From positions 6,503,828-6,567,827 of the forward strand of contig OZ004595.1 of the NCBI GenBank assembly GCA_963924555.1: 64,000 bases of DNA, in the 5' to 3' direction. Below, piece by piece: positions 421-64,000 of this stretch. The translations under genes and the position numbers were made by a program. The stretch's first letter is position 1. Each line of letters begins with the position of its first letter. Source of the DNA: Crambe crambe. Taxonomy: Eukaryota; Porifera; Demospongiae; Poecilosclerida; Crambeidae. The notes under the pieces were generated by a model. The model had not been told where the DNA came from, did not search any database, and was given only the letters and a program-made list of their open reading frames with translations.

Positions 421-2318
421 TTAATAATTAGCTTGGTTAGAAAGCCTTTTCAATTGCCTCTCCATTTTTCTCCTCCAATGTTGGTCTAGTTTCTTGCGGT
501 GCTGCTCTTCAATTTCAGCAATTTTCAGTAGCTTTTTTTTCTTTTCTCTGTGTATCCTCTTGATCCAGCGGTTGGTGAAGTCACCCACTTTAATGAGAGT
601 GATGAACACTCCTGCTAGAGCCCCTAAAGTGTTCCAAACATTGGTCGACAATATGTCAGTGACATACTCATAAGTGTCTTCCTTCCATTCATAGAGGGCT
701 AAGATCGGTCTATCAGTTCTCTCAGAAATGTTTCTCCAGTCATTATGAGATGCTAGATCAGAATGGACATTGAATTCAGACTCATTCTTTGTTCCGACAT
801 TGTACACAGTATAGGACATTTTGACCCAGCACCTGAAACCAACAGGAAGAGAGTAGAGTGGTACCTTTTGCTCCACGTATGCCAAGTAGGCGGTTTGTTC
901 TTGCACTGATTTTTCCTGCACTTCATGCCAGTGATCCATTAACATATACTCTATTGCACTGTAGGAATGTGTTGTTGTGTCCACTGTCAACTGAACAGCA
1001 AGACTCTGTTTGAGACGAACTAAAGTAGGCCCATTGAATACCATGGCTGTTCTGTTGCGTTGGAGTGCACGAGAGAAGAAAGTGACATTTCCATAGGTGC
1101 AGTTTATGGGCCCAGGAAGTTTCGTACTCTTCTCAGGGTGTAAATCATCCTGGTATATAAAATTACAGTAATCGAATATAGCAAAGTCATCAATGAACAT
1201 GGCAATTCCTATAGTGTGGTATGTCTCAAGACTGATGTACTGGAATGAGCGGGCACGATGCTTGTAAGAGGTAACAAGTGCTTTGATAGAGAAGAAGGCA
1301 ACAATTGCAGCCACCACTATAAATGCAAAGTAGACTGGGGGCAAGATGATCAGCTTGAGTCTATCTCTCCAGGAACGATGATAAACCAAGTTACCTGGGG
1401 GAGGTTCTTTTAACACTTCATCATCGCTGTCACTATCAGAAATTTTTACTAGATGATAACTCTTGTCACTCTGCAGTAAAAATAAAATGTTCCTCAGTGA
1501 TGTATTAACATGGCACATTGTCTGCTGTCCCTAGTCTCGCGGGCCGACCCTTTACCAACCCAAGGGAAGGGAAAGGGTCTGGTCAAACTTGCATGAGCAT
1601 TTCGTTCTGCACATTCTGCAAAATAGAAAGTGCTAATGATTTGTGTGCGTCACACTGCGTCACATTATTGTGCGCATGGAATAGTGCTACAATATATATA
1701 TATATATATATATATGCTGTATGCAGGTTAAAGAGCTTCTCTTCCACTTTCTGAGCTTGATCAGGCCCTGATGCCACGAATTTCAGCTAGCACTCACAGC
1801 TCGAGCACAAGAACAATCTCTGCTGGGCTTTCCAAAGGCACAGTAGCTGCTGTGTAGTCTCATTCAGCGGCACAACTAGCTAGCTCCATGCAACTTCTTA
1901 TGGCTTAGTAGCTAGAGCCAGCAGCTGCTCTTTCCAGCAGCTCAGCCTCGCTCTCGATCGATTATCCGAATGACTAAACTTATAACATTATTCATAGCTT
2001 TGAGGTTATTTTACACTGAATTAATTATTTCTTGGAGTTTGATTTTTTTCTCCCCTTGGGTTGGTAAAGGGTAGGCCCGCGAGGCTATGCTGGGCTACTG
2101 CTCAAAATGAGTGGTCTGATCTTAATTAAGTCTGCTGATACTTTAGTAGTAGGAGTGCACACATATTTCTATCGCTACACAATAATGATTCTTACCCCAA
2201 CAAGAATGTGTGACTCTGAGCCTCCGTCATTGGAGGCTTGTACGCTGCCGTAGCCTTGATCTTCATTGTATGAATCAGCAGCCTCAGTCTTCCCTTCAAG
2301 CAGTGAGGTGGACTCCAT
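421..2318 (-). CDS. PACC1: Proton-activated chloride channel (PACC1/TMEM206), 390 aa, two exons
   Basis: Exons are complement(421..1470) and complement(2196..2318); both splice sites are phase 0 (GTAAGA donor, CTGCAG acceptor). The protein has a short acidic N-terminal tail, a first membrane helix near residues 84-106, a large extracellular domain with N-glycosylation sequons, a second helix near the C-terminus and a basic cytoplasmic tail. Family-diagnostic stretches are GFRCWVKMS and WNTLGALAGVFITLIKVGDF. The latter keeps the lysine that in the human channel sits in the pore and sets anion selectivity. The family forms a trimeric plasma-membrane/endosomal chloride channel opened by acid. 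The 725-bp intron is unusually long for this window because it contains a MITE (1534-2085). A longer single-exon reading starting at 1518 is possible but would discard the well-formed first exon. The gene is divergent from SELENOK, with 150 bp between start codons. Confidence 0.9.
1534..2085. mobile_element. Non-autonomous MITE-like element in PACC1 intron
   Basis: Imperfect terminal inverted repeats of about 36 bp (1534-1570 and 2051-2085; outer sequence GTCTCGCGGGCC against its complement) bracket 552 bp with no coding potential. A TA dinucleotide flanks both ends (1532-1533 and 2086-2087), consistent with a TA target-site duplication as in Tc1/mariner-type elements. The interior contains a TA microsatellite near 1691-1714 and several GCTAGC/CAGCT-rich stretches. 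The family assignment is inference from repeat structure only. Confidence 0.7.
1691..1714. repeat. (TA)n microsatellite
   Basis: A run of alternating TA dinucleotides, about 12 units, inside the MITE in the PACC1 intron. Likely polymorphic. Confidence 0.9.
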
Positions 2319-5480: not shown

Positions 5481-8400
5481 ATGTTGTCCAGAAGGCTTTC
5501 AGGGACAGTGGTAAGAGACGAGAGTGAACATCCAACAAGTAATGGACATGAATATGTAAACTCTCCGAAAAAACTGAACCGCTCTCTTACAATCTGTGAG
5601 GGCAGTGATGGTGACATAAAAAAGTATCATGTCAAACAGTCTCACAAGCCCAGTTCCCCCTTGAGGAGATTTTCCAATGCCAAGGAAGCAATTTCCCATG
5701 CATTTCAACTCGTTCAGAATTGTCTAGTGGACTCCCAAAAATTTTTTAGTCGTGTGCAGTCGGATGCAAGGTCTCCTCCTGTAAATGATTTGGTGCGGCG
5801 AGTGGATGGTATCACAGAGATCCTGAATAAGGACCACATGAAAGTAGTTTTTTTTGGTCGGACGAGTAATGGAAAGAGTACGGTGATTAATGGGCTATTG
5901 AAGGATAAAGTGCTACCGGCTGGCATAGGTCATACCACCAATTGTTTCTGTAGTGTTGTGGGAGTGGACGAGTCAGAAGGCTATCTCATCCCACCAAGAT
6001 CAAAGGAAAAAATGAATGTCAAGGTTTGTTAGAGGTTACCAAGCATGGGAGGGTATGTTACAGTGCACGTGTCTCTATCCTACAGAATGTGAAGCAATTG
6101 GCTCATTCTTTGCACAAGGAGCATTTGGATTCAAACAGCTTGGTTGAGATATTCTGGCCAAAAGCAAAGTCAGTCATACCCTGTCTGCTTTCTATTTAGT
6201 GCATACCTGCTATTGTGCCTGCCATAACCCACTATAATCTGGTATAACCCCCCAACTGGGGCATAGCACTGGATTTCAGACACCTGCTATGCTTCTTTCT
6301 TTTGCAATAATGTCAGACTAACAAAATGGCTGGCAATTTTTAAACATCTGTCCTGGGGTATCAATAGGAATAGATCTGACCTTCATAAATGAATTGTGAT
6401 TGATGTGTATGAACATGTGTAGATGTCCACTGCTGAATGGAGAAGTTGAGTTGATGGACAGTCCTGGCATTGACATGAACCCTAACCTGGACCAGTGGAT
6501 TAGCAAGTATTGCTTGGATGCTGATGTTTTTGTTCTGGTCTCAAATGCTGAGTCAACACTAATGACAGCTGTGAGTTGAAGGACTGCCTCTCCACATCAT
6601 GGGGCATCTTTAATGACGTTTTCTTCTCTCTCAGGAAAAGAAATTTTTCCATCGTGTGAGCGAGCGTCTTTCCAAGCCCAATATCTTCATTCTGAATAAC
6701 CGCTGGGATTGCTCAGCACAAGAGGAGCCCGATATGATGGCTGAGGTATGTCAGTTGGGGAAGGTGGGTTCCCATTCTATATTTATCTTGTGATGCAGGT
6801 GATGAAACAGCACCTCGATGCCGATGTCAAATTTTTGGCAGATGAGCTAGCAGTGGTGGATGAGGAAACAGCTAGAAACAGGGTCTTCTTTGTATCAGCA
6901 AAGGAAGTTCTGCATGTGCGGACAGAGCAGTCATCGGGAACTGTAGCAGAAGAACAGTTCCATGGGCTTGCTGATGGGTGGAAGAAACGTTTGATGGCCT
7001 TTGAGCGATTTGAAGAATTGTTCAAGCAGTGTATATCTAGCACTGCCATTTTGACCAAGTTTGAGCGGCACTACAAGCAGGGTTGTGAGGTGGTACAAGA
7101 ACTGGAACAGCTTCTCGGGCAAGAGATGGAGGATCTTTCACAACAATGGTAGGTTCTCTTTGGGTGCATGACTACAGCTGATGATTGTTTTGCAGTGTGG
7201 GTGTGAGGAAAGAAAAGAGTGATAAATGTGAACAGAGGAAGATCCTTGAGAGTGAAGGACAGAAAGTTCAGGAGAGGTGCCAATCGAAATCGCAGGGCAC
7301 GATAAAAGATGTGGAGGAAAAGTTAAAGGCAGCCATAAAAGATACCAGAAACCAGCTTCCTGATTTGGTCAAACGTTTTGAGGAAGAATTTAGCGAGGAG
7401 GAGGAGAAACTGGATCACTACAAACAAGCCCTCTTCCAGTTCATGGACGAAGAACTAAGCAAACTTCTGGAACTCACTACAACTTCCCTTCCTTCACTTC
7501 ATCAGGAAATGGAAACCTATATAGTTGGTAAGTGGTGGAATACTCTTTGAGTATGGACATAGTGGCTTGCTTTGAGCTGTTATAAAACTCTGTAGAGGAG
7601 TACCAATCTTTGCTAAGATTACCTGATGCTGATGTGAAGCGTTTCTTCCAGCCTACTAATCCTCCTCCACTTAATTTCACCTTTAAGTGTGCTCAGCTTT
7701 GTGAAGATTTTAATCCTGACCCTCGTTTCAGTTTCTTCCGTTCTCTTGGCTTCTCAGGCAACTGGCTGGTGAATATAAGATATGATTATCCATTAGCTGG
7801 CAGATACTTGCCCTTCTTTTCAATACAGAGGGATAAGTTTAGATTTGAATCAGCAGTGGGGGGAGTGTACAGTCAACTGTCTCGTATGTGGTCATTGGTC
7901 CCAACAGAATATGCTGTTCCCATGGTATTGCTGAGTGGTGCTTTTATGGTAAGCATTTTTCTCCCCTGAGGATTCAAGTCTTACCACACCTTACCATACA
8001 GCTCCCTCGAGTGTTCAGTTACAAAGTATGGCTGATTTCCCTTGGTGCTTATGCTTCTCTCTATACGTGGAAGTGGAGCACACATCGCCCTGTGAAAGCT
8101 GTCAAGGACCAGGTGAATCACAATACGAATAAATAGTGCGAAGGAGACAGATTAAACTTTTCTGCAGTTTGTTGCCCACATGGTGTCCAAACTGGAGGGC
8201 CCCCAAACACAAGCCACTTGCAACAACTACAAAAGCCAGGTGAAAAGCAACTTGGATAATCTACAAGCTCGACTGCAGGGAGCGTTGGAATCCAACAAGC
8301 TGGAAACCAACGAGACCATCAACCAGCTCACAGAAAAGGCACTGAATTTGGAGAATCTCCGAAACCAAGCAAAAGCACTCAAGTAAGGACTTTCCAGTAA

Positions 8401-16325: not shown

Positions 16326-17195
16326 CTACATTGCCTTAGTGTCCACCATGCCATAAGTAGGGTAGCCAGAAGCACCCAGCCCTGTCAATCCAGGACTAGG
16401 CAAGTATGAACTGCCATACATCCCTAAACTCTGGCTCATTCCCATCGCAAAATTTCCACTGGAACTTGCTCCAAAATTGAATCCTGTCAGTGCTGATGTA
16501 TTGGAGAACTGTCTGTAGGAGTCCATGTTGCAGTGTGATGGCATGGGGGTGGAAGGAGGGCTGGATTTCATCATCATGGCACTGGTACTGCTACAGGTGG
16601 TAGTCCCTGGCCCTGGCCAGTTGAAGTAAGGACCAGCTCCACTGGCTGCTGCTACTGGACTGAGATGTTGGGGAGGTGGGTAAGCTGCAGGTGCTGCGTA
16701 TGGATGGTAGCCAACACGATCTTCATAGAAGCCTGCTCCAGGATTTCCAGTGGTGAAATAGATGGCTTTCTTTGGCTCATTGGTCGGTTTAGTAGGACGC
16801 TTCATCCTCTTACGACGCTTGAAGTTTCCTTTCTCAAACATCTCTTCGCATGCCTCGTCCAGTGTCCAGTAGTTGCCCTTCCTATCCCCTCCTTCCTTGG
16901 GCACTTTGACAAAGCATTCATTCAGGGAGAGATTGTGTCGAATAGAGTTCTGCCAACCTTTCTTGTTTTTTGCATAGTAGGGGAAGTTATCCATGATGAA
17001 CTGGTAGATGCCACTCAGAGTCAGTCTCTTATCTGGAGATTTTGCAATGGCCATGGCGATTAATGCGACATAGGAGTAGGGAGGCTTCACGTCCTCGCAG
17101 CGATCATTGTCCGTGTTAACTGCAGCAAATAGCGATTTTTCTGCAGCAGTGAGTGAGTGACGGCCAGGTCTTTGCTTTTGGTATTCCATGCCCAT
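16326..17195 (-). CDS. FOXL2: Forkhead transcription factor, FOXL2-like, 289 aa, single exon
   Basis: One open frame with a complete forkhead DNA-binding domain at about residues 36-135. It has [15 protein letters not shown], the recognition helix [15 protein letters not shown], and wing/NLS residues [20 protein letters not shown] followed by [10 protein letters not shown]. The combination [11 protein letters not shown], the basic RRKRMKRP ending and intronless structure best match FOXL2 among Fox families. The C-terminal half is Pro/Ser/Gly/Tyr-rich, typical of an activation domain, with a YGMVDTKAM end. FOXL2 controls gonadal and cell-fate programmes in bilaterians; the role in this organism is unknown. 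Convergent with OTUD3, divergent from ARMC3. Confidence 0.88.
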
Positions 17196-17576
17196 TGCAA
17201 GTGTCAGATTTATTTATTCCTGAAGAGGTAGAGTGTCGTTTACTTGTAGTTCAAGTGCTGGTTGAGTCTACTGTGACTCTAAACAACTGCATCTCACTAT
17301 TTATAGCTCCGGCCCGAGCTCGAAACCGCAACGCCCCCTCATTTGGTGTTGCCAGTTGGTAATAATGCGTAGTATGTTGACTGTCGAGCTAATAATTGAA
17401 TTAGCCCAAGGCGGGGGGACACCAACATTGGATATTTGGATATCTGTGGTTAGAAGTGGTCTCACCGGAACTACATTGCTTCATAGCCAACAAGCCACTA
17501 TAAATAATACACTCTATTAGCCACGCCTACTTATTAGATTAGGTCGTCATGGTTACGATTTCTGATGTAGGTTGAG
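17196..17576. promoter_or_regulatory. FOXL2-like/ARMC3 intergenic promoter region
   Basis: This 381-bp gap lies between divergent start codons and is richer in unique sequence than the other divergent gaps. It contains a G-run (GGCGGGGGG near 17410-17419). No TATA box in a convincing position on either strand. Contains no open frame that looks coding. Confidence 0.4.
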
Positions 17577-20500
17577 ATGCCTCCCAAAGCTAAAAGAAAG
17601 AGTCAAGGAGAAAAACCACAGGCTCCAGTGGATGAGGTGAGAGTGTTTCAATTGGGGGGCACTAACTAGCTTGTTGCATCAAATGTCAGAAAGCCTTCCA
17701 AGTGGACATCTCCACTAGTGACCCCAGGACAATAGTGGTGATGTTGGATTCTCCTGAGCTCTTTGTCATCTGCAAGGCATGCGAGGCACTGGTGAAACAC
17801 CTGGAGACTTGTAAGTTATCATGGATGGTAATACTTTCCATATCTTAAATCCCTTTTTCTTTTTTTTTCAAGCTGAAAAATGTGTGATGGAAGTTGTAGA
17901 GCTTGGCGGCATTCCTAGACTGCTGCACTTAATTGCTTCATCTGAAAGACCTGCTCGATGCCATGCAATAGTCTGCCTCACCACCATGGCTTCACATGGT
18001 AAGTTGCTTGCAGACACTCAATTTGTATTGTCGACAGCAAAATTATTCTGTTCCAGTTGCTGTTCGACGCTTACTTTATAAGACTGACTGTATCCCAGCT
18101 TTGCTTCAACTGCTTAAATTGGATGGTATACAGTAGAAAATCTTAGCCAATGGATGATTTAAAATTTCATTCTGGTGCAGAGGATCTGATAGTCCAGGAG
18201 AGAGCATCCTATATCTTGACATTACTTGCCGGTATAATTGCAACCTCTGAAAATTAATGATTGTGTGATCTTTTATTGTATAGATAATTACAGCTTCAAG
18301 GTGACCTTGGGAAAGCACAATGCACACAGACCGCTCTTATCTCTAATCCAATCACCTGATCCTGACGTCCAAGTCAGTGTGGCCATTAATTAGTTTAAAA
18401 AAAGTGTCATTCTCTCTTGATTTACAGAGGAATTGTATTACAATATTGAATCTGCTGATGGAGAATTTCCTGTTGCGACCAGCACTACTTGAAGATAACG
18501 GACTTCCCTTGATCATGGGTCTCCTTGATTCTGAGTACGCTATTATCCAGAAGCAAGCCCTTCTTACTCTCCGTTCCTGCATGCACCATGGTAAGTATAT
18601 GCACCTCTTTTCATATGATAGATAACTAAAACATTCAGCTCCATCTCGAGAAGCAACAGTTAGTGGAGAGGGTCTCTCGAGATTAGTGACTTTTTTGGGA
18701 GAGAAAGCATGTGCTGATCTTCATGTGTTGACGGTTGAAGTTCTTTCTCTGTGCTTGGCTGAAGCTAGCTCCACGACTGCTCTGCAGGGATCAAATTGCC
18801 TGGAGAAACTTTTGGTCAACATCACGGAGAGCTCTGACCCTATCATGAAGAAAAATGCTACAAGGACACTGGCCAGTGCTGCTCTTGATGGTGAGGTATT
18901 TTTACCAGTTAATAGTTACGCTCCATCTATATATTTTCATGTTCAGATCTGAGCAGAAAAATTCTTCATGAGCATCAAGCTGAGAAGACTTTTATTCGGC
19001 TGCTTTCCACTGAGGTATGGACGGAGTTTACCATTCCTGTAAGAGGAAAGATTGCGTCCTTGATTTTCAGGATGGAGGGGTGGCGGAAGCTGCTTGTGCC
19101 GTATTGTCTAATATGGCTAGTTTGAAATCCAGCCAGCAGTTCATTGGTATTGAAGGAGGTGTGGCTGGACTCATCAAGTACCTTGGGGCAGAAGAAGGTG
19201 CAGTCAGAGTTGCGGCAATACATTGCTTGGCCTGTCTGCTCAACGAGTCTCCAGCTAATTGCAAGTGAGTATCAGAAAAATTTCAGAGGAAGCTTGAGTT
19301 TGTAATCAATCTTGCATGTGATTTTTAGGATAGTTGGTGAAAATGATGGATCAGAATCCTTGGTTTTTCTGCTGTCTGACACTGAAGCAGCTTGTTGTCA
19401 GTTTGCTGCAGAGTGTGTCGTGAGCATGTCCTGTGAAGGTCTGAAGTTCTTCAATCATAGAGACAGGACTCCTAACAGTTATTATCATTAGAAATAATGC
19501 GGGAAGAACTGATATCCTGTGGTGCAGTGACTGGTCTGGTGGCTGCATTGAAGTTTGAAGACTCTGCAGTTCAAGCCATTGCTGCACAAGCTGTGGGTAT
19601 GCTGGCTTGTGACCAGAGTGCTAGGCAACAGGTGTGCAGACATTTTCGGGTCCTCCATTGCTTAATAGCCATTCTTTGCACTATAGGTTTGTAGCAATGC
19701 TGGATTAGAGCCTCTCATTAAACTCTTACAGTCACCTTCCGAAAAAGTGTTGAAAAATGCAATTTGGGCCATTCAAGTGTGTGCTCAAAGTCCACAGGCT
19801 GCGGAAGAGATAGGCAGACTAGGGTCAGTTGTGTTACATGTCCTAGTTAATAGCACAAACTTAGCTACAATGGTAATGCTGCAGTGGTATTGGATTGGTG
19901 GAAACCATCGGTGCATCAGATCACATGCATTGTGGCACATTGGCACAAAGCACTGTGCAGAGTTTATTGAATGCTAATCTTCCAGCCAAGTACTGGATGA
20001 CTGGTGCATTGGACATGACTGATAGCATTGTCAATACGGAGTTTTATGATGCTGGGCCGGTAAGTTATCGTGCCACATTCTTCCCCCAAAATGATTGGAT
20101 GTCATACAGGCACAGAGTAGTCAACCCTTTGTGAGTCTCTCCGAGCTGATTAGTCAACCACCAGTTAGGAACCAACCGATCATAACGGTCAACTTGCTGA
20201 CCAAACCTTTACCAAAGTTAAATGGACACGACGATTCATTGGTACAAGGTACAGCACCAACACCAGGAGTAGGACCAGCAGACGAAACACCGTCCACCAT
20301 CAACAGCCGCAGCAAGTCAAAGCAGCAGCAGGCTACTTCTAAAAGGTAAGAGAGAATCAATCGCATGTTTGAATACCGATTCTCTTTTATTTAGCAAGCG
20401 AGGGAAGGCAGACAGGGGGGATAATGAGTCTCGGTTATCTGAAGAGTCTCACTTGGCAAGTGAAGACAGTAAGCCAACACTGATTGGGTTACTGGAATTG

Positions 20501-35066: not shown

Positions 35067-37193
<2,127 letters not shown>

Positions 37194-50403: not shown

Positions 50404-50605
50404 GATTTCACTTCCCTTCGAATTTCCGTGAATATATCCGTGGGGCGTGGCAGGTGCTAGAGTGAAGCTATCTCTACGCTCTTAGCAGCAACTTGAAACT
50501 CTTATTCTGAGCTAGCTCTTGTGCAAAGAGCGTGGAGATAGCGCTTCTCTATCACGAGCCACGCCCCACGGATATATTCACGGAAGTTCGAAGGGAAGTG
50601 AAATC
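50404..50605. mobile_element. Fold-back MITE, copy 1
   Basis: About 48-bp near-perfect terminal inverted repeats (outer GATTTCACTTCCCTTCGAA; inner GTGGGGCGTGGC) flank a short partly palindromic centre (GCTCTT...AAGAGCG). The whole 202 bp can form one long hairpin. No coding capacity. No clear target-site duplication. Confidence 0.75.
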
Positions 50606-50617
50606 AACAGTACAGTT

Positions 50618-50806
50618 GATTTCAACTTCCGTGGTTATTTCGTGGGGCGTGGCAGGTGATAGAGTGAAGCTATCTTTACGCTCTTTGCAGCAACTTGAAA
50701 CTCTTGTTCTGAATAGCTCTTGTGCAAAGAGCGTGGAGATAGCGCCTCTCTCTCACGAGCCACGCCCCACGGATATATTCACGGAAGTTCCAAGGGAAGT
50801 GAAATC
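50618..50806. mobile_element. Fold-back MITE, copy 2
   Basis: A 189-bp relative of copy 1, same orientation, with the same right end (GCCACGCCCCACGG ... GGGAAGTGAAATC) and a left terminal repeat that has lost about 12 bp (GATTTCAACTTCCGTGG). Only 12 bp separate the two copies. Confidence 0.75.
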
Positions 50807-52129
50807 ATATAGATATAAGAGGTTTACGGGATTGGAAACGGATCACGTGCTCTCGTTAGCAACTCTATAACAACCGAGGCGCGTTGACAGCTGAATGACA
50901 TAGCACTTTTGTCAAAGTTGCTGTTCTGACAAGATCCATGAGGTAAGACTTATGCCAATGATACTATAATACACTAGGGCATAGATTTACTGTATGAAAT
51001 AAATTTCAGCTCAGATTTTCAAGTTTATTCCTACAAATACTACTGTAGTGGTTAATGGGACTGTAATCCCTCTCACGCTTGATGGAATCAATTGCTGTTG
51101 CCCATTTTCTGATCAAAAGGCGTAAACTTTAGCTACATGGAATAGTAATGTTGGTTTTTGTATTAGCTGACATATATTGTCTCTAGCATTTGCAAGTGGT
51201 GTTAAAACTGTAATCCCTCTCCCAAGAAATAGATTAACAATATTGAAACTGTATTAGTTATTTCAGGGAAAGGATAAAACAGTAAATGAAATTTGTGCAT
51301 TCGTTTTCTATACAATAGTCATCCTATGGAGATGGCAAGCTTACTATATTTCCCCCCTAATATCCATAGAGTCCACAGGACAGCTGACTGAGCCGAATTC
51401 TTGAGGTGGATGGTGTCAAAACCCAACAGCCAAAAGCTGGAAGTATTGCAATAATGTTGATGAGGGAGAACTGAGCAGAAACTGGTGGATAACTTTGGGG
51501 CAAAGTTATCTAGCTATAATAATGATGAATTTATGTCTAATTTTTATACCAAAAGTCATTCTGGCCTTTCTTTCAAATCAATCACATAAAATTAATGTAT
51601 AATGAGCAACTACTCATAGTTACAAGGAAAAAAGTTATGAATAATTAATAACTTCCTTCCTCAGACTCTCCAACTTCAACTCTCTGACTCTTCACTTCTT
51701 CAATACCTTCCCCTTAGCTTACTTGTACTATTCTGTGAGCTGTAGGGGCAGAATATCACTTTAACTGCCTTGAAAGGAGTCGCCACGGTTGTGCAGTTCA
51801 TTGGGCGTTTCCAATCCCGTAAAACCTCTTGGTACCTACAGTACGGTAGGACTATCAGAAATAGAAACATCAGCTATGGAAACATATCAGCTTTAGCTAC
51901 CATAGCCACTGTACCTACGGTTGGACCAGAAATAAGCGGCGCCTATTTAGACCAAACTGGCTATAGATAAACGGGGGTTTTCTTCACTCGAGGCTGCTCA
52001 CCAAGCGCTTCCATCTTCCTAGGCGGCTCCGATCTTCCACTTGAGCGGCCATTTCGACTAACTTTAACATAGACATGTACGGTAAAGGGATAACGAAGTT
52101 TGTACCTGCATAATATAGAAATTCTCTTT
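50807..52129. other. Subtelomeric non-coding stretch
   Basis: No conserved protein match. From about 51836 the first copies of the motif family TGGAAACATCAGCTATAGC / GTACCTACGGTTGGACC appear, which recur through 55080. Short open frames here are not supported by homology. Confidence 0.5.
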
Positions 52130-56110: not shown

Positions 56111-56240
56111 TCAACTATCCAGAACATTCTTTTCACTATTAACTTTCGAAATATTCACCCACATTTTGTTAAACTTTTTTTAACACACACATATTTAAGA
56201 CAATTGCGCATGTCAATTACCAACTACGCATATTTCTCTA

Positions 56241-57060
56241 ATTGAGGCCCACCATATCTAATTGATGCCCACCATATCTAATTGATGCCCACCATATCTA
56301 ATTGATGCCCACCATATCTAATTGATGCCCACCATATCTAATTGATGCCCACCATATCTAATTGATGCCCACCATATCTAATTGATGCCCACCATATCTA
56401 ATTGATGCCCACCATATCTAATTGATGCCCACCATATCTAATTGATGCCCACCATATCTAATTGATGCCCACCATATCTAATTGATGCCCACCATATCTA
56501 ATTGATGCCCACCATATCTAATTGATGCCCACCATATCTAATTGATGCCCACCATATCTAATTGATGCCCACCATATCTAATTGATGCCCACCATATCTA
56601 ATTGATGCCCACCATATCTAATTGATGCCCACCATATCTAATTGATGCCCACCATATCTAATTGATGCCCACCATATCTAATTGATGCCCACCATATCTA
56701 ATTGATGCCCACCATATCTAATTGATGCCCACCATATCTAATTGATGCCCACCATATCTAATTGATGCCCACCATATCTAATTGATGCCCACCATATCTA
56801 ATTGATGCCCACCATATCTAATTGATGCCCACCATATCTAATTGATGCCCACCATATCTAATTGATGCCCACCATATCTAATTGATGCCCACCATATCTA
56901 ATTGATGCCCACCATATCTAATTGATGCCCACCATATCTAATTGATGCCCACCATATCTAATTGATGCCCACCATATCTAATTGATGCCCACCATATCTA
57001 ATTGATGCCCACCATATCTAATTGATGCCCACCATATCTAATTGATGCCCACCATATCTA
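56241..57060. repeat. 20-bp subtelomeric satellite, 41 copies
   Basis: Unit ATTGATGCCCACCATATCTA, 41 copies in perfect register. Only the first unit differs (ATTGAGGCCC). Its last three bases, CTA, merge with the first CTAGGG of the terminal array. Confidence 0.97.
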
Positions 57061-60000
57061 GGGCTAGGGCTAGGGCTAGGGCTAGGGCTAGGGCTAGGGC
57101 TAGGGCTAGGGCTAGGGCTAGGGCTAGGGCTAGGGCTAGGGCTAGGGCTAGGGCTAGGGCTAGGGCTAGGGCTAGGGCTAGGGCTAGGGCTAGGGCTAGG
57201 GCTAGGGCTAGGGCTAGGGCTAGGGCTAGGGCTAGGGCTAGGGCTAGGGCTAGGGCTAGGGCTAGGGCTAGGGCTAGGGCTAGGGCTAGGGCTAGGGCTA
57301 GGGCTAGGGCTAGGGCTAGGGCTAGGGCTAGGGCTAGGGCTAGGGCTAGGGCTAGGGCTAGGGCTAGGGCTAGGGCTAGGGCTAGGGCTAGGGCTAGGGC
57401 TAGGGCTAGGGCTAGGGCTAGGGCTAGGGCTAGGGCTAGGGCTAGGGCTAGGGCTAGGGCTAGGGCTAGGGCTAGGGCTAGGGCTAGGGCTAGGGCTAGG
57501 GCTAGGGCTAGGGCTAGGGCTAGGGCTAGGGCTAGGGCTAGGGCTAGGGCTAGGGCTAGGGCTAGGGCTAGGGCTAGGGCTAGGGCTAGGGCTAGGGCTA
57601 GGGCTAGGGCTAGGGCTAGGGCTAGGGCTAGGGCTAGGGCTAGGGCTAGGGCTAGGGCTAGGGCTAGGGCTAGGGCTAGGGCTAGGGCTAGGGCTAGGGC
57701 TAGGGCTAGGGCTAGGGCTAGGGCTAGGGCTAGGGCTAGGGCTAGGGCTAGGGCTAGGGCTAGGGCTAGGGCTAGGGCTAGGGCTAGGGCTAGGGCTAGG
57801 GCTAGGGCTAGGGCTAGGGCTAGGGCTAGGGCTAGGGCTAGGGCTAGGGCTAGGGCTAGGGCTAGGGCTAGGGCTAGGGCTAGGGCTAGGGCTAGGGCTA
57901 GGGCTAGGGCTAGGGCTAGGGCTAGGGCTAGGGCTAGGGCTAGGGCTAGGGCTAGGGCTAGGGCTAGGGCTAGGGCTAGGGCTAGGGCTAGGGCTAGGGC
58001 TAGGGCTAGGGCTAGGGCTAGGGCTAGGGCTAGGGCTAGGGCTAGGGCTAGGGCTAGGGCTAGGGCTAGGGCTAGGGCTAGGGCTAGGGCTAGGGCTAGG
58101 GCTAGGGCTAGGGCTAGGGCTAGGGCTAGGGCTAGGGCTAGGGCTAGGGCTAGGGCTAGGGCTAGGGCTAGGGCTAGGGCTAGGGCTAGGGCTAGGGCTA
58201 GGGCTAGGGCTAGGGCTAGGGCTAGGGCTAGGGCTAGGGCTAGGGCTAGGGCTAGGGCTAGGGCTAGGGCTAGGGCTAGGGCTAGGGCTAGGGCTAGGGC
58301 TAGGGCTAGGGCTAGGGCTAGGGCTAGGGCTAGGGCTAGGGCTAGGGCTAGGGCTAGGGCTAGGGCTAGGGCTAGGGCTAGGGCTAGGGCTAGGGCTAGG
58401 GCTAGGGCTAGGGCTAGGGCTAGGGCTAGGGCTAGGGCTAGGGCTAGGGCTAGGGCTAGGGCTAGGGCTAGGGCTAGGGCTAGGGCTAGGGCTAGGGCTA
58501 GGGCTAGGGCTAGGGCTAGGGCTAGGGCTAGGGCTAGGGCTAGGGCTAGGGCTAGGGCTAGGGCTAGGGCTAGGGCTAGGGCTAGGGCTAGGGCTAGGGC
58601 TAGGGCTAGGGCTAGGGCTAGGGCTAGGGCTAGGGCTAGGGCTAGGGCTAGGGCTAGGGCTAGGGCTAGGGCTAGGGCTAGGGCTAGGGCTAGGGCTAGG
58701 GCTAGGGCTAGGGCTAGGGCTAGGGCTAGGGCTAGGGCTAGGGCTAGGGCTAGGGCTAGGGCTAGGGCTAGGGCTAGGGCTAGGGCTAGGGCTAGGGCTA
58801 GGGCTAGGGCTAGGGCTAGGGCTAGGGCTAGGGCTAGGGCTAGGGCTAGGGCTAGGGCTAGGGCTAGGGCTAGGGCTAGGGCTAGGGCTAGGGCTAGGGC
58901 TAGGGCTAGGGCTAGGGCTAGGGCTAGGGCTAGGGCTAGGGCTAGGGCTAGGGCTAGGGCTAGGGCTAGGGCTAGGGCTAGGGCTAGGGCTAGGGCTAGG
59001 GCTAGGGCTAGGGCTAGGGCTAGGGCTAGGGCTAGGGCTAGGGCTAGGGCTAGGGCTAGGGCTAGGGCTAGGGCTAGGGCTAGGGCTAGGGCTAGGGCTA
59101 GGGCTAGGGCTAGGGCTAGGGCTAGGGCTAGGGCTAGGGCTAGGGCTAGGGCTAGGGCTAGGGCTAGGGCTAGGGCTAGGGCTAGGGCTAGGGCTAGGGC
59201 TAGGGCTAGGGCTAGGGCTAGGGCTAGGGCTAGGGCTAGGGCTAGGGCTAGGGCTAGGGCTAGGGCTAGGGCTAGGGCTAGGGCTAGGGCTAGGGCTAGG
59301 GCTAGGGCTAGGGCTAGGGCTAGGGCTAGGGCTAGGGCTAGGGCTAGGGCTAGGGCTAGGGCTAGGGCTAGGGCTAGGGCTAGGGCTAGGGCTAGGGCTA
59401 GGGCTAGGGCTAGGGCTAGGGCTAGGGCTAGGGCTAGGGCTAGGGCTAGGGCTAGGGCTAGGGCTAGGGCTAGGGCTAGGGCTAGGGCTAGGGCTAGGGC
59501 TAGGGCTAGGGCTAGGGCTAGGGCTAGGGCTAGGGCTAGGGCTAGGGCTAGGGCTAGGGCTAGGGCTAGGGCTAGGGCTAGGGCTAGGGCTAGGGCTAGG
59601 GCTAGGGCTAGGGCTAGGGCTAGGGCTAGGGCTAGGGCTAGGGCTAGGGCTAGGGCTAGGGCTAGGGCTAGGGCTAGGGCTAGGGCTAGGGCTAGGGCTA
59701 GGGCTAGGGCTAGGGCTAGGGCTAGGGCTAGGGCTAGGGCTAGGGCTAGGGCTAGGGCTAGGGCTAGGGCTAGGGCTAGGGCTAGGGCTAGGGCTAGGGC
59801 TAGGGCTAGGGCTAGGGCTAGGGCTAGGGCTAGGGCTAGGGCTAGGGCTAGGGCTAGGGCTAGGGCTAGGGCTAGGGCTAGGGCTAGGGCTAGGGCTAGG
59901 GCTAGGGCTAGGGCTAGGGCTAGGGCTAGGGCTAGGGCTAGGGCTAGGGCTAGGGCTAGGGCTAGGGCTAGGGCTAGGGCTAGGGCTAGGGCTAGGGCTA

Positions 60001-63000
60001 GGGCTAGGGCTAGGGCTAGGGCTAGGGCTAGGGCTAGGGCTAGGGCTAGGGCTAGGGCTAGGGCTAGGGCTAGGGCTAGGGCTAGGGCTAGGGCTAGGGC
60101 TAGGGCTAGGGCTAGGGCTAGGGCTAGGGCTAGGGCTAGGGCTAGGGCTAGGGCTAGGGCTAGGGCTAGGGCTAGGGCTAGGGCTAGGGCTAGGGCTAGG
60201 GCTAGGGCTAGGGCTAGGGCTAGGGCTAGGGCTAGGGCTAGGGCTAGGGCTAGGGCTAGGGCTAGGGCTAGGGCTAGGGCTAGGGCTAGGGCTAGGGCTA
60301 GGGCTAGGGCTAGGGCTAGGGCTAGGGCTAGGGCTAGGGCTAGGGCTAGGGCTAGGGCTAGGGCTAGGGCTAGGGCTAGGGCTAGGGCTAGGGCTAGGGC
60401 TAGGGCTAGGGCTAGGGCTAGGGCTAGGGCTAGGGCTAGGGCTAGGGCTAGGGCTAGGGCTAGGGCTAGGGCTAGGGCTAGGGCTAGGGCTAGGGCTAGG
60501 GCTAGGGCTAGGGCTAGGGCTAGGGCTAGGGCTAGGGCTAGGGCTAGGGCTAGGGCTAGGGCTAGGGCTAGGGCTAGGGCTAGGGCTAGGGCTAGGGCTA
60601 GGGCTAGGGCTAGGGCTAGGGCTAGGGCTAGGGCTAGGGCTAGGGCTAGGGCTAGGGCTAGGGCTAGGGCTAGGGCTAGGGCTAGGGCTAGGGCTAGGGC
60701 TAGGGCTAGGGCTAGGGCTAGGGCTAGGGCTAGGGCTAGGGCTAGGGCTAGGGCTAGGGCTAGGGCTAGGGCTAGGGCTAGGGCTAGGGCTAGGGCTAGG
60801 GCTAGGGCTAGGGCTAGGGCTAGGGCTAGGGCTAGGGCTAGGGCTAGGGCTAGGGCTAGGGCTAGGGCTAGGGCTAGGGCTAGGGCTAGGGCTAGGGCTA
60901 GGGCTAGGGCTAGGGCTAGGGCTAGGGCTAGGGCTAGGGCTAGGGCTAGGGCTAGGGCTAGGGCTAGGGCTAGGGCTAGGGCTAGGGCTAGGGCTAGGGC
61001 TAGGGCTAGGGCTAGGGCTAGGGCTAGGGCTAGGGCTAGGGCTAGGGCTAGGGCTAGGGCTAGGGCTAGGGCTAGGGCTAGGGCTAGGGCTAGGGCTAGG
61101 GCTAGGGCTAGGGCTAGGGCTAGGGCTAGGGCTAGGGCTAGGGCTAGGGCTAGGGCTAGGGCTAGGGCTAGGGCTAGGGCTAGGGCTAGGGCTAGGGCTA
61201 GGGCTAGGGCTAGGGCTAGGGCTAGGGCTAGGGCTAGGGCTAGGGCTAGGGCTAGGGCTAGGGCTAGGGCTAGGGCTAGGGCTAGGGCTAGGGCTAGGGC
61301 TAGGGCTAGGGCTAGGGCTAGGGCTAGGGCTAGGGCTAGGGCTAGGGCTAGGGCTAGGGCTAGGGCTAGGGCTAGGGCTAGGGCTAGGGCTAGGGCTAGG
61401 GCTAGGGCTAGGGCTAGGGCTAGGGCTAGGGCTAGGGCTAGGGCTAGGGCTAGGGCTAGGGCTAGGGCTAGGGCTAGGGCTAGGGCTAGGGCTAGGGCTA
61501 GGGCTAGGGCTAGGGCTAGGGCTAGGGCTAGGGCTAGGGCTAGGGCTAGGGCTAGGGCTAGGGCTAGGGCTAGGGCTAGGGCTAGGGCTAGGGCTAGGGC
61601 TAGGGCTAGGGCTAGGGCTAGGGCTAGGGCTAGGGCTAGGGCTAGGGCTAGGGCTAGGGCTAGGGCTAGGGCTAGGGCTAGGGCTAGGGCTAGGGCTAGG
61701 GCTAGGGCTAGGGCTAGGGCTAGGGCTAGGGCTAGGGCTAGGGCTAGGGCTAGGGCTAGGGCTAGGGCTAGGGCTAGGGCTAGGGCTAGGGCTAGGGCTA
61801 GGGCTAGGGCTAGGGCTAGGGCTAGGGCTAGGGCTAGGGCTAGGGCTAGGGCTAGGGCTAGGGCTAGGGCTAGGGCTAGGGCTAGGGCTAGGGCTAGGGC
61901 TAGGGCTAGGGCTAGGGCTAGGGCTAGGGCTAGGGCTAGGGCTAGGGCTAGGGCTAGGGCTAGGGCTAGGGCTAGGGCTAGGGCTAGGGCTAGGGCTAGG
62001 GCTAGGGCTAGGGCTAGGGCTAGGGCTAGGGCTAGGGCTAGGGCTAGGGCTAGGGCTAGGGCTAGGGCTAGGGCTAGGGCTAGGGCTAGGGCTAGGGCTA
62101 GGGCTAGGGCTAGGGCTAGGGCTAGGGCTAGGGCTAGGGCTAGGGCTAGGGCTAGGGCTAGGGCTAGGGCTAGGGCTAGGGCTAGGGCTAGGGCTAGGGC
62201 TAGGGCTAGGGCTAGGGCTAGGGCTAGGGCTAGGGCTAGGGCTAGGGCTAGGGCTAGGGCTAGGGCTAGGGCTAGGGCTAGGGCTAGGGCTAGGGCTAGG
62301 GCTAGGGCTAGGGCTAGGGCTAGGGCTAGGGCTAGGGCTAGGGCTAGGGCTAGGGCTAGGGCTAGGGCTAGGGCTAGGGCTAGGGCTAGGGCTAGGGCTA
62401 GGGCTAGGGCTAGGGCTAGGGCTAGGGCTAGGGCTAGGGCTAGGGCTAGGGCTAGGGCTAGGGCTAGGGCTAGGGCTAGGGCTAGGGCTAGGGCTAGGGC
62501 TAGGGCTAGGGCTAGGGCTAGGGCTAGGGCTAGGGCTAGGGCTAGGGCTAGGGCTAGGGCTAGGGCTAGGGCTAGGGCTAGGGCTAGGGCTAGGGCTAGG
62601 GCTAGGGCTAGGGCTAGGGCTAGGGCTAGGGCTAGGGCTAGGGCTAGGGCTAGGGCTAGGGCTAGGGCTAGGGCTAGGGCTAGGGCTAGGGCTAGGGCTA
62701 GGGCTAGGGCTAGGGCTAGGGCTAGGGCTAGGGCTAGGGCTAGGGCTAGGGCTAGGGCTAGGGCTAGGGCTAGGGCTAGGGCTAGGGCTAGGGCTAGGGC
62801 TAGGGCTAGGGCTAGGGCTAGGGCTAGGGCTAGGGCTAGGGCTAGGGCTAGGGCTAGGGCTAGGGCTAGGGCTAGGGCTAGGGCTAGGGCTAGGGCTAGG
62901 GCTAGGGCTAGGGCTAGGGCTAGGGCTAGGGCTAGGGCTAGGGCTAGGGCTAGGGCTAGGGCTAGGGCTAGGGCTAGGGCTAGGGCTAGGGCTAGGGCTA

Positions 63001-64000
63001 GGGCTAGGGCTAGGGCTAGGGCTAGGGCTAGGGCTAGGGCTAGGGCTAGGGCTAGGGCTAGGGCTAGGGCTAGGGCTAGGGCTAGGGCTAGGGCTAGGGC
63101 TAGGGCTAGGGCTAGGGCTATAGGGCTAGGGCTAGGGCTAGGGCTAGGGCTAGGGCTAGGGCTAGGGCTAGGGCTAGGGCTAGGGCTAGGGCTAGGGCTA
63201 GGGCTAGGGCTAGGGCTAGGGCTAGGGCTAGGGCTAGGGCTAGGGCTAGGGCTAGGGCTAGGGCTAGGGCTAGGGCTAGGGCTAGGGCTAGGGCTAGGGC
63301 TAGGGCTAGGGCTAGGGCTAGGGCTAGGGCTAGGGCTAGGGCTAGGGCTAGGGCTAGGGCTAGGGCTAGGGCTAGGGCTAGGGCTAGGGCTAGGGCTAGG
63401 GCTAGGGCTAGGGCTAGGGCTAGGGCTAGGGCTAGGGCTAGGGCTAGGGCTAGGGCTAGGGCTAGGGCTAGGGCTAGGGCTAGGGCTAGGGCTAGGGCTA
63501 GGGCTAGGGCTAGGGCTAGGGCTAGGGCTAGGGCTAGGGCTAGGGCTAGGGCTAGGGCTAGGGCTAGGGCTAGGGCTAGGGCTAGGGCTAGGGCTAGGGC
63601 TAGGGCTAGGGCTAGGGCTAGGGCTAGGGCTAGGGCTAGGGCTAGGGCTAGGGCTAGGGCTAGGGCTAGGGCTAGGGCTAGGGCTAGGGCTAGGGCTAGG
63701 GCTAGGGCTAGGGCTAGGGCTAGGGCTAGGGCTAGGGCTAGGGCTAGGGCTAGGGCTAGGGCTAGGGCTAGGGCTAGGGCTAGGGCTAGGGCTAGGGCTA
63801 GGGCTAGGGCTAGGGCTAGGGCTAGGGCTAGGGCTAGGGCTAGGGCTAGGGCTAGGGCTAGGGCTAGGGCTAGGGCTAGGGCTAGGGCTAGGGCTAGGGC
63901 TAGGGCTAGGGCTAGGGCTAGGGCTAGGGCTAGGGCTAGGGCTAGGGCTAGGGCTAGGGCTAGGGCTAGGGCTAGGGCTAGGGCTAGGGCTAGGGCTAGG
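57058..64000 (+). repeat. Terminal (CTAGGG)n array, probable non-canonical telomere
   Basis: About 6.94 kb (some 1,157 units) of the hexamer CTAGGG (equivalently GGGCTA), running to the last base of the window. The G-rich strand runs 5' to 3' toward the right edge, as expected of a right-hand chromosome end. The only irregularity seen is an extra TA at 63121-63122 (GGGCTATAGGGC). No TTAGGG units were seen. Confidence 0.93.

What the first reader, a model, noticed from the sequence alone, without database searches (positions are those of the whole stretch)
57058..64000. Chromosome end capped by (CTAGGG)n instead of the animal TTAGGG telomere
Seen: 6.9 kb of pure CTAGGG, G-strand oriented outward, directly after a subtelomeric satellite and running off the window edge. 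Known: most animals, including sponges examined so far to my knowledge, use TTAGGG; CTAGGG occurs in human telomeres only as an interspersed, unstable variant repeat. Inference: the telomerase RNA template here would read as a permutation of CCCUAG, and telomere-binding proteins (TRF/POT1 class) would have to tolerate a C at the first position. Each unit contains the self-complementary tetramer CTAG, so the single-stranded overhang could form hairpins or pair with other ends, and G-quadruplex loops would be CTA, able to form G-C-G-C tetrads. This would be a telomere system change in an animal.
Basis: partly seen in the sequence, partly recalled or inferred. Interest (0 to 1): 0.92.

Follow-up and report, generated by a model that had tools for sequence, protein, structure and literature searches.

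The report
A sponge with CTAGGG telomeres
The chromosomes of this marine sponge appear to end in thousands of copies of CTAGGG instead of the TTAGGG reported for sponges and most other animals, a variant that in people is a minor and unstable guest.

Summary
Window 57058-64000 is 1,155 CTAGGG units plus one CTATAGGG, no TTAGGG, and the window's last base is the contig's last. The genome matches Crambe crambe odCraCram1.1 (Demospongiae): 17 of 18 chromosome lengths agree to rounding. CTAGGG, G-strand outward, ends 28 of 36 chromosome-contig ends; two more carry it inside head-to-head joins; six show none in what was read. Seventeen arrays hold 18,143 CTAGGG units and one TTAGGG unit. Genome-wide, (CTAGGG)4 matches 40,889 times, (TTAGGG)4 twice. 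Matches to TERT, two POT1-like genes and two telobox-like Myb domains are present. The telomerase RNA was not found: 56 of 74 sites of one template length were tested, none above shuffles; raw reads were not available. Best reading: a telomerase-made switch from TTAGGG to CTAGGG. Earlier work, as quoted in papers whose passages I read, gives sponges TTAGGG. My searches listed no report of a species with CTAGGG telomeres.

The parts
57058..64000 (+). Terminal telomere array (CTAGGG)n, G-strand reading outward, to the last base of the contig; one CTATAGGG unit about 87% along
56237..57060 (+). Subtelomeric satellite, 20-bp unit TCTAATTGATGCCCACCATA, 41.2 copies; the same unit or a close variant lies next to the array at eight other arrays read
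57057..57063 (+). Satellite/telomere junction: the satellite reads ...CCATATCTA(ATTG); the array starts at its CTA (ATAT|CTAGGG), the same phase as at C5L, C11L, C14L and the inner array of C12; the 60-bp flank is identical to that of C14L

Best explanation
This is the right end of chromosome 15 of the sponge Crambe crambe, and (CTAGGG)n is that species' normal telomere repeat, made by telomerase. Shown: in the assembly the repeat is near-perfect, G-strand outward and terminal at 28 of 36 chromosome-contig ends; TTAGGG is virtually absent; sequences matching TERT, POT1 and telobox-type Myb proteins are present. Inferred: the telomerase RNA template has changed from a CUAACCC-type to a CUAGCCC-type sequence (one A-to-G change per copy of that position in the template). 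Telomerase would align a 3' end such as ...CTA or ...G on the template and copy GGGCTAG repeatedly. Older TTAGGG units have been lost by terminal turnover. The overhang would be held by POT1, the duplex by TRF-type Myb proteins that accept C at position 1.
For: Terminal arrays: 15 of 18 left ends begin with CCCTAG repeats and 13 of 18 right ends finish with CTAGGG repeats. In 17 arrays (109,288 bp) there are 18,143 CTAGGG units, one TTAGGG unit, one TTAGGGGG and one CTTAGGG; telomere recombination or a decaying satellite would be expected to mix in more variants. Genome counts are 19,099 + 21,790 for (CTAGGG)4 against 1 + 1 for (TTAGGG)4; the backwards control pattern gives 0 in both. TERT: PF12009 matches E 1.0e-13 and 1.9e-6 on C6, both over the cut-off, with FFYVTE (T motif) and SKLRFIPK...RPIVN (RT motifs 1/2) in the translation (motif names recalled). 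POT1: E 7.4e-25 on C20 and 4.4e-11 on C21, aligning with the OB-fold region of human POT1. TRF-type: a Myb domain ending an open frame with LKDKYRNIKGRK on C19, and another on C18 (E 3.0e-4 and 7.8e-4 against human TRF1 Myb). Junctions: at nine satellite-flanked arrays the satellite is cut at 4 or 5 different points and the array begins in register after CTA, TA, C or G, as expected of addition by telomerase; not all nine are independent (see full report). Basecalling: HiFi reads at 459-fold, QV 58.1 (PMC12166358, passages); in another study HiFi gave over 95% alignment accuracy within an Arabidopsis telomere-repeat vector (PMC9845338, passages).
Against: The telomerase RNA and its template were not found. 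RF00024 gives nothing (27 of 286 first-look candidates scored), and 56 of 74 sites of the 11-nt form CTAGCCCTAGC score no better than shuffles. Raw reads were not available. Array lengths (4.8-8.6 kb) are near the mean read length of about 6.9 kb (67.94 Gb / 9.82 million reads), so what lies further out is unseen. Six of 36 ends show no telomere in what I read: 10 kb at C15L, only 300 bases at C1R, C10R, C13R, C17R and C21R. The larger TERT match runs over one TAG stop, perhaps an intron, TERT's catalytic motifs A to C were not located, and the C-terminal model reached no cut-off. The TRFH domain model found nothing, without a positive control. No wet-lab evidence exists here.
Confidence: 0.93

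Rival explanations
1. CTAGGG is a long subterminal satellite or variant-repeat zone, as in some human telomeres, and the true cap further out is TTAGGG that the assembly lost.
For: Human telomeres hold CTAGGG among their variant repeats, and (CTAGGG)n arrays there are very unstable in the male germ line (PMC7073516, passages). Perfect repeats longer than the reads are truncated in assemblies.
Against: (TTAGGG)4 occurs twice in 143 Mb, both times internally as four units in a row, although long TTAGGG caps on about 36 ends at 459-fold coverage should leave some contigs or array tips. No TTAGGG tip is seen at any of the 28 terminal ends. The 17 arrays hold one TTAGGG unit. Human variant zones are interspersed with TTAGGG; these arrays are not.
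Confidence: 0.04
2. Systematic base-calling or consensus error turns TTAGGG into CTAGGG.
For: Telomeric repeats are a known trouble spot for some platforms (recalled, for nanopore).
Against: PacBio HiFi data, QV 58.1. TTAGGG is read as such at two internal places of the same assembly. Left ends read CCCTAG and right ends CTAGGG. An error at one position in more than 99% of units is not a HiFi error known to me.
Confidence: 0.01
3. The array is kept by recombination (ALT-like copying or fusion and breakage) rather than by telomerase.
For: Two head-to-head array pairs exist in the assembly (C1 near 18,760; C12 near 7,634-7,785), CTAG is self-complementary, and some chromosome ends share identical flanks (C5L with C12b, C18R with C14L), so ends do exchange sequence.
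Against: A TERT gene is present, at least in part. The arrays read are near-perfect without mixed variants. Several satellite junctions differ in phase. The join at C12 links ends with different junction sequences and is most simply an assembly join.
Confidence: 0.02

Closest known systems
(TTAGGG)n telomeres of sponges and other animals (Traut 2007 and Sakai 2007, as cited in PMC8233369 and PMC5793068; originals not read)
   Same: Hexamer with three G, G-strand outward, kilobases long; TERT, POT1 and telobox-type Myb sequences present
   Different: First base is C, not T, in more than 99% of units; each unit holds the palindrome CTAG
CTAGGG variant repeats of human telomeres (PMC7073516, PMC3919612, passages; Mendez-Bermudez 2009 cited there, not held)
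   Same: Same hexamer; PMC3919612 reports that telomerase extension brings variants at position 1 and that CTAGGG lowers TRF1/TRF2 binding in vitro
   Different: There a minor variant among TTAGGG; here the whole array in the 17 arrays read, with no TTAGGG zone in them
Motif switches in other lineages: TCAGG in beetles (PMC8233369, passages), TTCGG in an earwig (PMC11829193, abstract in listing only), AAACCCG/AAACCG in Mimulus (PMC12169523, passages)
   Same: Small change of the ancestral repeat; in Mimulus traced to changed and duplicated telomerase RNA templates
   Different: Those are insects and plants; this is a non-bilaterian animal, and the telomerase RNA is not in hand

Membership tests
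Telomerase-made eukaryotic telomere repeat | Short G-rich tandem repeat, terminal, G-strand 5'-3' towards the chromosome end | tested here: met
   28 of 36 chromosome-contig ends
Telomerase-made eukaryotic telomere repeat | Same repeat on all chromosomes | tested here: met
   17 of 18 chromosome contigs have it terminally at one end or both; C1 has it only inside the head-to-head join near its left end. Single ends without it in what was read: C15L (10 kb), C1R, C10R, C13R, C17R, C21R (300 bases each)
Telomerase-made eukaryotic telomere repeat | TERT gene in the genome | tested here: met
   PF12009 over cut-off on C6, the larger match with one TAG inside; T motif and RT motifs 1/2 in translation. 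Catalytic exons not found; TERT_C hits below cut-off, so completeness is not shown
Telomerase-made eukaryotic telomere repeat | Telomerase RNA whose template is complementary to the repeat | tested here: inconclusive
   RF00024 no hit; 56 of 74 sites of the 11-nt template form tested, none above shuffles; the 10-nt form not exhausted (one search listed 100 of 346), shorter forms not searched
Telomerase-made eukaryotic telomere repeat | BAL31 sensitivity or terminal position shown on DNA | not testable with these tools
   needs sponge DNA
(TTAGGG)n animal telomere | Terminal repeat unit TTAGGG | tested here: not met
   1 TTAGGG unit against 18,143 CTAGGG units in 17 arrays; (TTAGGG)4 twice genome-wide
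Shelterin-type telomere proteins | POT1 with paired OB folds | tested here: met
   (sequence matches; no structure made)
Shelterin-type telomere proteins | TRF: TRFH domain plus C-terminal telobox Myb | tested here: inconclusive
   Telobox-like Myb at the end of an open frame on C19 and a second on C18; PF08558 (TRFH) no hit, but that search had no positive control

The most novel reading that the evidence does not exclude
A whole sponge lineage has replaced the ancestral animal telomere by one whose unit contains the palindrome CTAG. Its overhangs can then pair with themselves and with other ends (CTAG stems between G tracts) or form quadruplexes with G-C-G-C tetrads. End protection has been rebuilt around that, with two POT1 proteins and a TRF-type Myb helix that reads CTAGGG.
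Probability: 0.2. Interest if true: 0.88.

Novelty: new variant of a known kind. Interest (0 to 1): 0.74.

Why it matters
TTAGGG is held to be the ancestral motif of animals, present in all basal groups including sponges (PMC8233369, citing Traut 2007; passage). Here is a sponge with a different one, and the new unit is the very variant that in humans is reported as unusually unstable and as lowering TRF1/TRF2 binding (PMC7073516, PMC3919612; passages). An animal that lives with some 5-8 kb of it on its chromosomes makes it testable how telomere proteins and replication cope with CTAGGG, and how a telomerase RNA template changes without killing the lineage. The species is matched to a public HiFi assembly whose read accessions are published, so the first checks need no new sequencing.

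Tried and rejected
Telomerase RNA: the Rfam vertebrate model gave no hit (27 of 286 first-look candidates were scored). The template pattern DCTAGCCCTAGD gave 346 matches (backwards control 29), of which 100 were listed; many of those are spaced 30 bases apart like a 30-bp subtelomeric satellite that contains CTAGCCCTAG. The 11-nt form DCTAGCCCTAGCD gave 74 places (backwards control 12). I left out 18: 13 copies of one tandem with 28-29 base spacing on C12, 4 of 5 copies within 35 kb on C14, and one of two neighbours on C8. I fetched 56 and scored them for a U-rich/A-rich pseudoknot; the best score (22.1) lay below four of the 168 shuffles (24.7, 23.0, 22.7, 22.3); 24 of the 56 resemble another candidate and may be repeats. 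Not identified. The score was my own and assumed a vertebrate-like layout.

TRF co-evolution: the place of Val418 of human TRF1 (numbering recalled) is Asn in this sponge.

TRFH domain model PF08558: no hit and no control rang. TERT C-terminal model: three hits, all below the cut-off, two of them on C6 35-73 kb from the TERT match. Scan of viral contigs for (CTAGGG)4: 3 contigs with 1-2 matches each, not followed. tRNA and Rfam scans of the window: nothing. Literature: 'CTAGGG' + 'telomeric repeat' found 36 papers, 30 listed; going by titles and abstract starts, none is about a species with CTAGGG telomeres. CCCTAG + telomer found 37 papers, 25 listed, none such. Other phases found 4, none such. 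CTAGGG + telomer + sponge found one unrelated paper, CTAGGG + telomere + chromosome-level genome none. TeloBase's online table itself could not be consulted.
Full report
What is there. The last 6,943 bases of the window (57058-64000) are (CTAGGG)n: 1,155 perfect units, one CTATAGGG and a cut last unit; TTAGGG is absent from the array. It follows without a gap a 41-copy, 20-bp satellite. The window is C18:6503828-6567827 of the assembly G000 (143,139,886 bases, 119 contigs), and that contig has exactly 6,567,827 bases. So the array is the end of the contig, not cut by the window.

Whose genome. Of the 24 contigs whose length I saw, 18 are of chromosome size (C1, C3, C5, C6, C8-C21). Their lengths match, in order, the 18 chromosomes of Crambe crambe odCraCram1.1 (PMC12166358 Table 2, passages): 17 of 18 agree to rounding, and the other (C8, 9.168 against 9.18 Mb) differs by 0.01 Mb. 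Contig number (119 against 124 scaffolds) and total (143.14 against 143.20 Mb) differ slightly, so the held copy may be another version. The window is then the right end of chromosome 15. The genome note does not contain the word 'telomer'.

All chromosome ends. I read 10 kb of 15 left ends (C1, C3, C5, C6 and C8-C18; 20 kb at C1), 300 bases of three more (C19-C21), 300 bases of 14 right ends and of three more, plus the window; 6 kb more were read at C1L and C12L. Left: 15 of 18 begin with CCCTAG repeats within the first six bases. Right: 13 of 18 finish with CTAGGG repeats; at C6R the last 20 or so bases are degraded. C1L and C12L hold arrays inside head-to-head joins. C15L has none at its end in 10 kb; C1R, C10R, C13R, C17R and C21R have none in 300 bases. 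(CTAGGG)4 matches 19,099 + 21,790 times and (TTAGGG)4 1 + 1 times; the two TTAGGG places are short internal tracts. In 17 arrays taken whole or in part (109,288 bp) there are 18,143 CTAGGG units, 22 CTAGGGG, 17 CTAGG, five ATAGGG, and TTAGGG in three units only: a TTAGGG and a TTAGGGGG side by side some 11% into C13L and a CTTAGGG in the inner array of C1. Array borders were set by runs of CTAGGG, so units beyond them were not counted, but the 60 bases next to 16 arrays show no TTAGGG run. I see no zone left over from an older TTAGGG telomere.

How it probably arises. Nine of 16 junctions abut the satellite or a close variant: five start at its CTA (window, C5L, C11L, C14L, C12b), the others after ATTG(A) (C10L, C12a), CCATA (C17L) and GATGC (C18L). 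They are not all independent: the window and C14L share their 60-base flank, as do C5L and C12b, and outside the satellite C6L and C8L differ by one base; such ends may have copied one another. Elsewhere the array follows G runs or unrelated sequence. Starts in register after short matches to the repeat are what telomerase leaves when it extends a broken 3' end (inference). TERT: PF12009 matches on C6 at E 1.0e-13 (over one TAG, perhaps an intron) and 1.9e-6, with the sequences FFYVTE and SKLRFIPKVSKVRPIVN (motif names recalled); catalytic motifs were not found in the 7.2 kb read. Two POT1-like genes match human POT1 OB folds. Two telobox-like Myb domains were found, on C19 (end of an open frame, LKDKYRN) and C18 (LKDKARN), at modest E-values (3.0e-4, 7.8e-4). 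The template itself is not in hand: RF00024 is silent, and 56 of 74 eleven-nucleotide template-like sites showed no pseudoknot above shuffled controls. That test had low power: it assumed one template length and a vertebrate-like layout, and the published search for sponge TRs needed iterative models (PMC8480181, sections 5, 10 and 16 and passages read).

Consequences of the C. PMC3919612 (passages) states that CTAGGG diminishes human TRF1 and TRF2 binding in vitro, and that telomerase extension brings variants at position 1. PMC7073516 (passages) reports a male germ-line mutation rate of 20% per gamete for human (CTAGGG)n arrays. In this sponge the recognition helix of the C19 Myb reads TTNQLKDKYRN; 12 homologous proteins from unnamed sources have the same or nearly the same helix, with N or S at the place of human Val418, so nothing there is peculiar to Crambe. 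Either the helix tolerates both repeats or the relatives share CTAGGG; the data do not say. By nearest-neighbour DNA folding (CTAGGG)8 forms CTAG-stem hairpins at -5.2 kcal/mol and (CCCTAG)8 at -2.9, while (TTAGGG)8, (TCAGGG)8 and (CCCTAA)8 give 0. Quadruplexes are not in that model, and all 200 shuffles of (CTAGGG)8 fold at least as well, so this is a property of the composition of the unit and a weak argument.

Head-to-head joins. C12 begins with satellite, 6.9 kb CTAGGG, about 150 bases of CCTAGG-like sequence, 7.3 kb CCCTAG, then satellite inverted. The two satellites differ in unit and junction (...ATTGGGGG|CTAGGG and ...CACTT|CTAGGG), so it is not one end folded back. C1 has 8.5 kb CTAGGG meeting at least 7.2 kb CCCTAG at 18,755-18,765. 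Mean read length is about 6.9 kb, so these are most simply assembly joins, perhaps helped by the palindrome; true fusions are not excluded.

What is known. TTAGGG is described as the motif of all basal metazoan groups, sponges included (PMC8233369, passage, citing Traut 2007), and as the only type in three sponges tested (PMC5793068, passage, citing Sakai 2007, a FISH study by its title); I read neither original. TeloBase's paper lists motif changes in insects, plants and fungi (passages) and does not contain 'CTAGGG' in its held text. Mimulus shows how such a switch can happen: telomerase RNA duplication and divergence (PMC12169523, passages). My searches for CTAGGG or its phases as the telomere of a species showed nothing in what was listed; the TeloBase table and assembly pages could not be searched. 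Hence: a new variant (motif) of a known kind (telomerase-made telomere), in a phylum where no change was known to me.

Certainty. That this assembly ends in CTAGGG at 28 of 36 chromosome-contig ends is certain. That CTAGGG is the functional telomere is very likely (0.93); the missing pieces are raw reads, telomerase RNA and BAL31.

Noticed in passing
G000 C12:765-15129 (L021, L055) and C1:10215-26000 (L010, L056): Head-to-head pairs of telomere arrays (CTAGGG then CCCTAG) inside contigs; at C12 the joint is about 150 bases of CCTAGG-like, self-complementary sequence. Probably assembly joins of two chromosome ends; real fusions not excluded.
   Followed up: partly
L057:1105-2973 (C20) and L058:415-1887 (C21): Two POT1-like genes in one sponge genome, matching human POT1 chains at E 1.4e-32 and 6.5e-12; a possible duplication with different roles.
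   Followed up: partly
L059:1501-2220 (C19) and L060:1477-1758 (C18): Two telobox-like Myb domains. The C19 one has 12 unnamed homologues with N or S where human TRF1 has Val418 (recalled numbering), most of them with a GIFDR...EM.WSSDES-type motif before the Myb, function unknown to me.
   Followed up: partly
L015:8859-9104 (C6L); places with 30-base spacing on C1 (37948-38139) and C3 (53904-123283): A 30-bp subtelomeric satellite (CCCTTCCGAGTTGCATCTAGCCCTAGTCAT at C6L) that contains CTAGCCCTAG, 1.7 telomere units; the C1 and C3 places were seen only as pattern matches with that spacing.
   Followed up: no
C1:1247-1306 (L009): Ten perfect CTAGGG units in the interior of the 10-kb stretch before the joined array on C1.
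   Followed up: no
C6L and C8L (L015, L017), C5L and C12b, C18R and C14L: Pairs of chromosome ends with identical or nearly identical 60-base flanks at the telomere junction, a hint of sequence exchange between subtelomeres.
   Followed up: no
window 16329-17213 (-), 424-1530 (-), 36217-36702 (-), 35398-35790 (-): Ordinary animal genes in the window: FOXL2-like forkhead, TMEM206, an SH2 domain and a protein-tyrosine phosphatase.
   Followed up: partly
window 50424-50807: A 201-bp direct repeat, 1.9 copies, 92% matches, about 6 kb from the telomere array.
   Followed up: no
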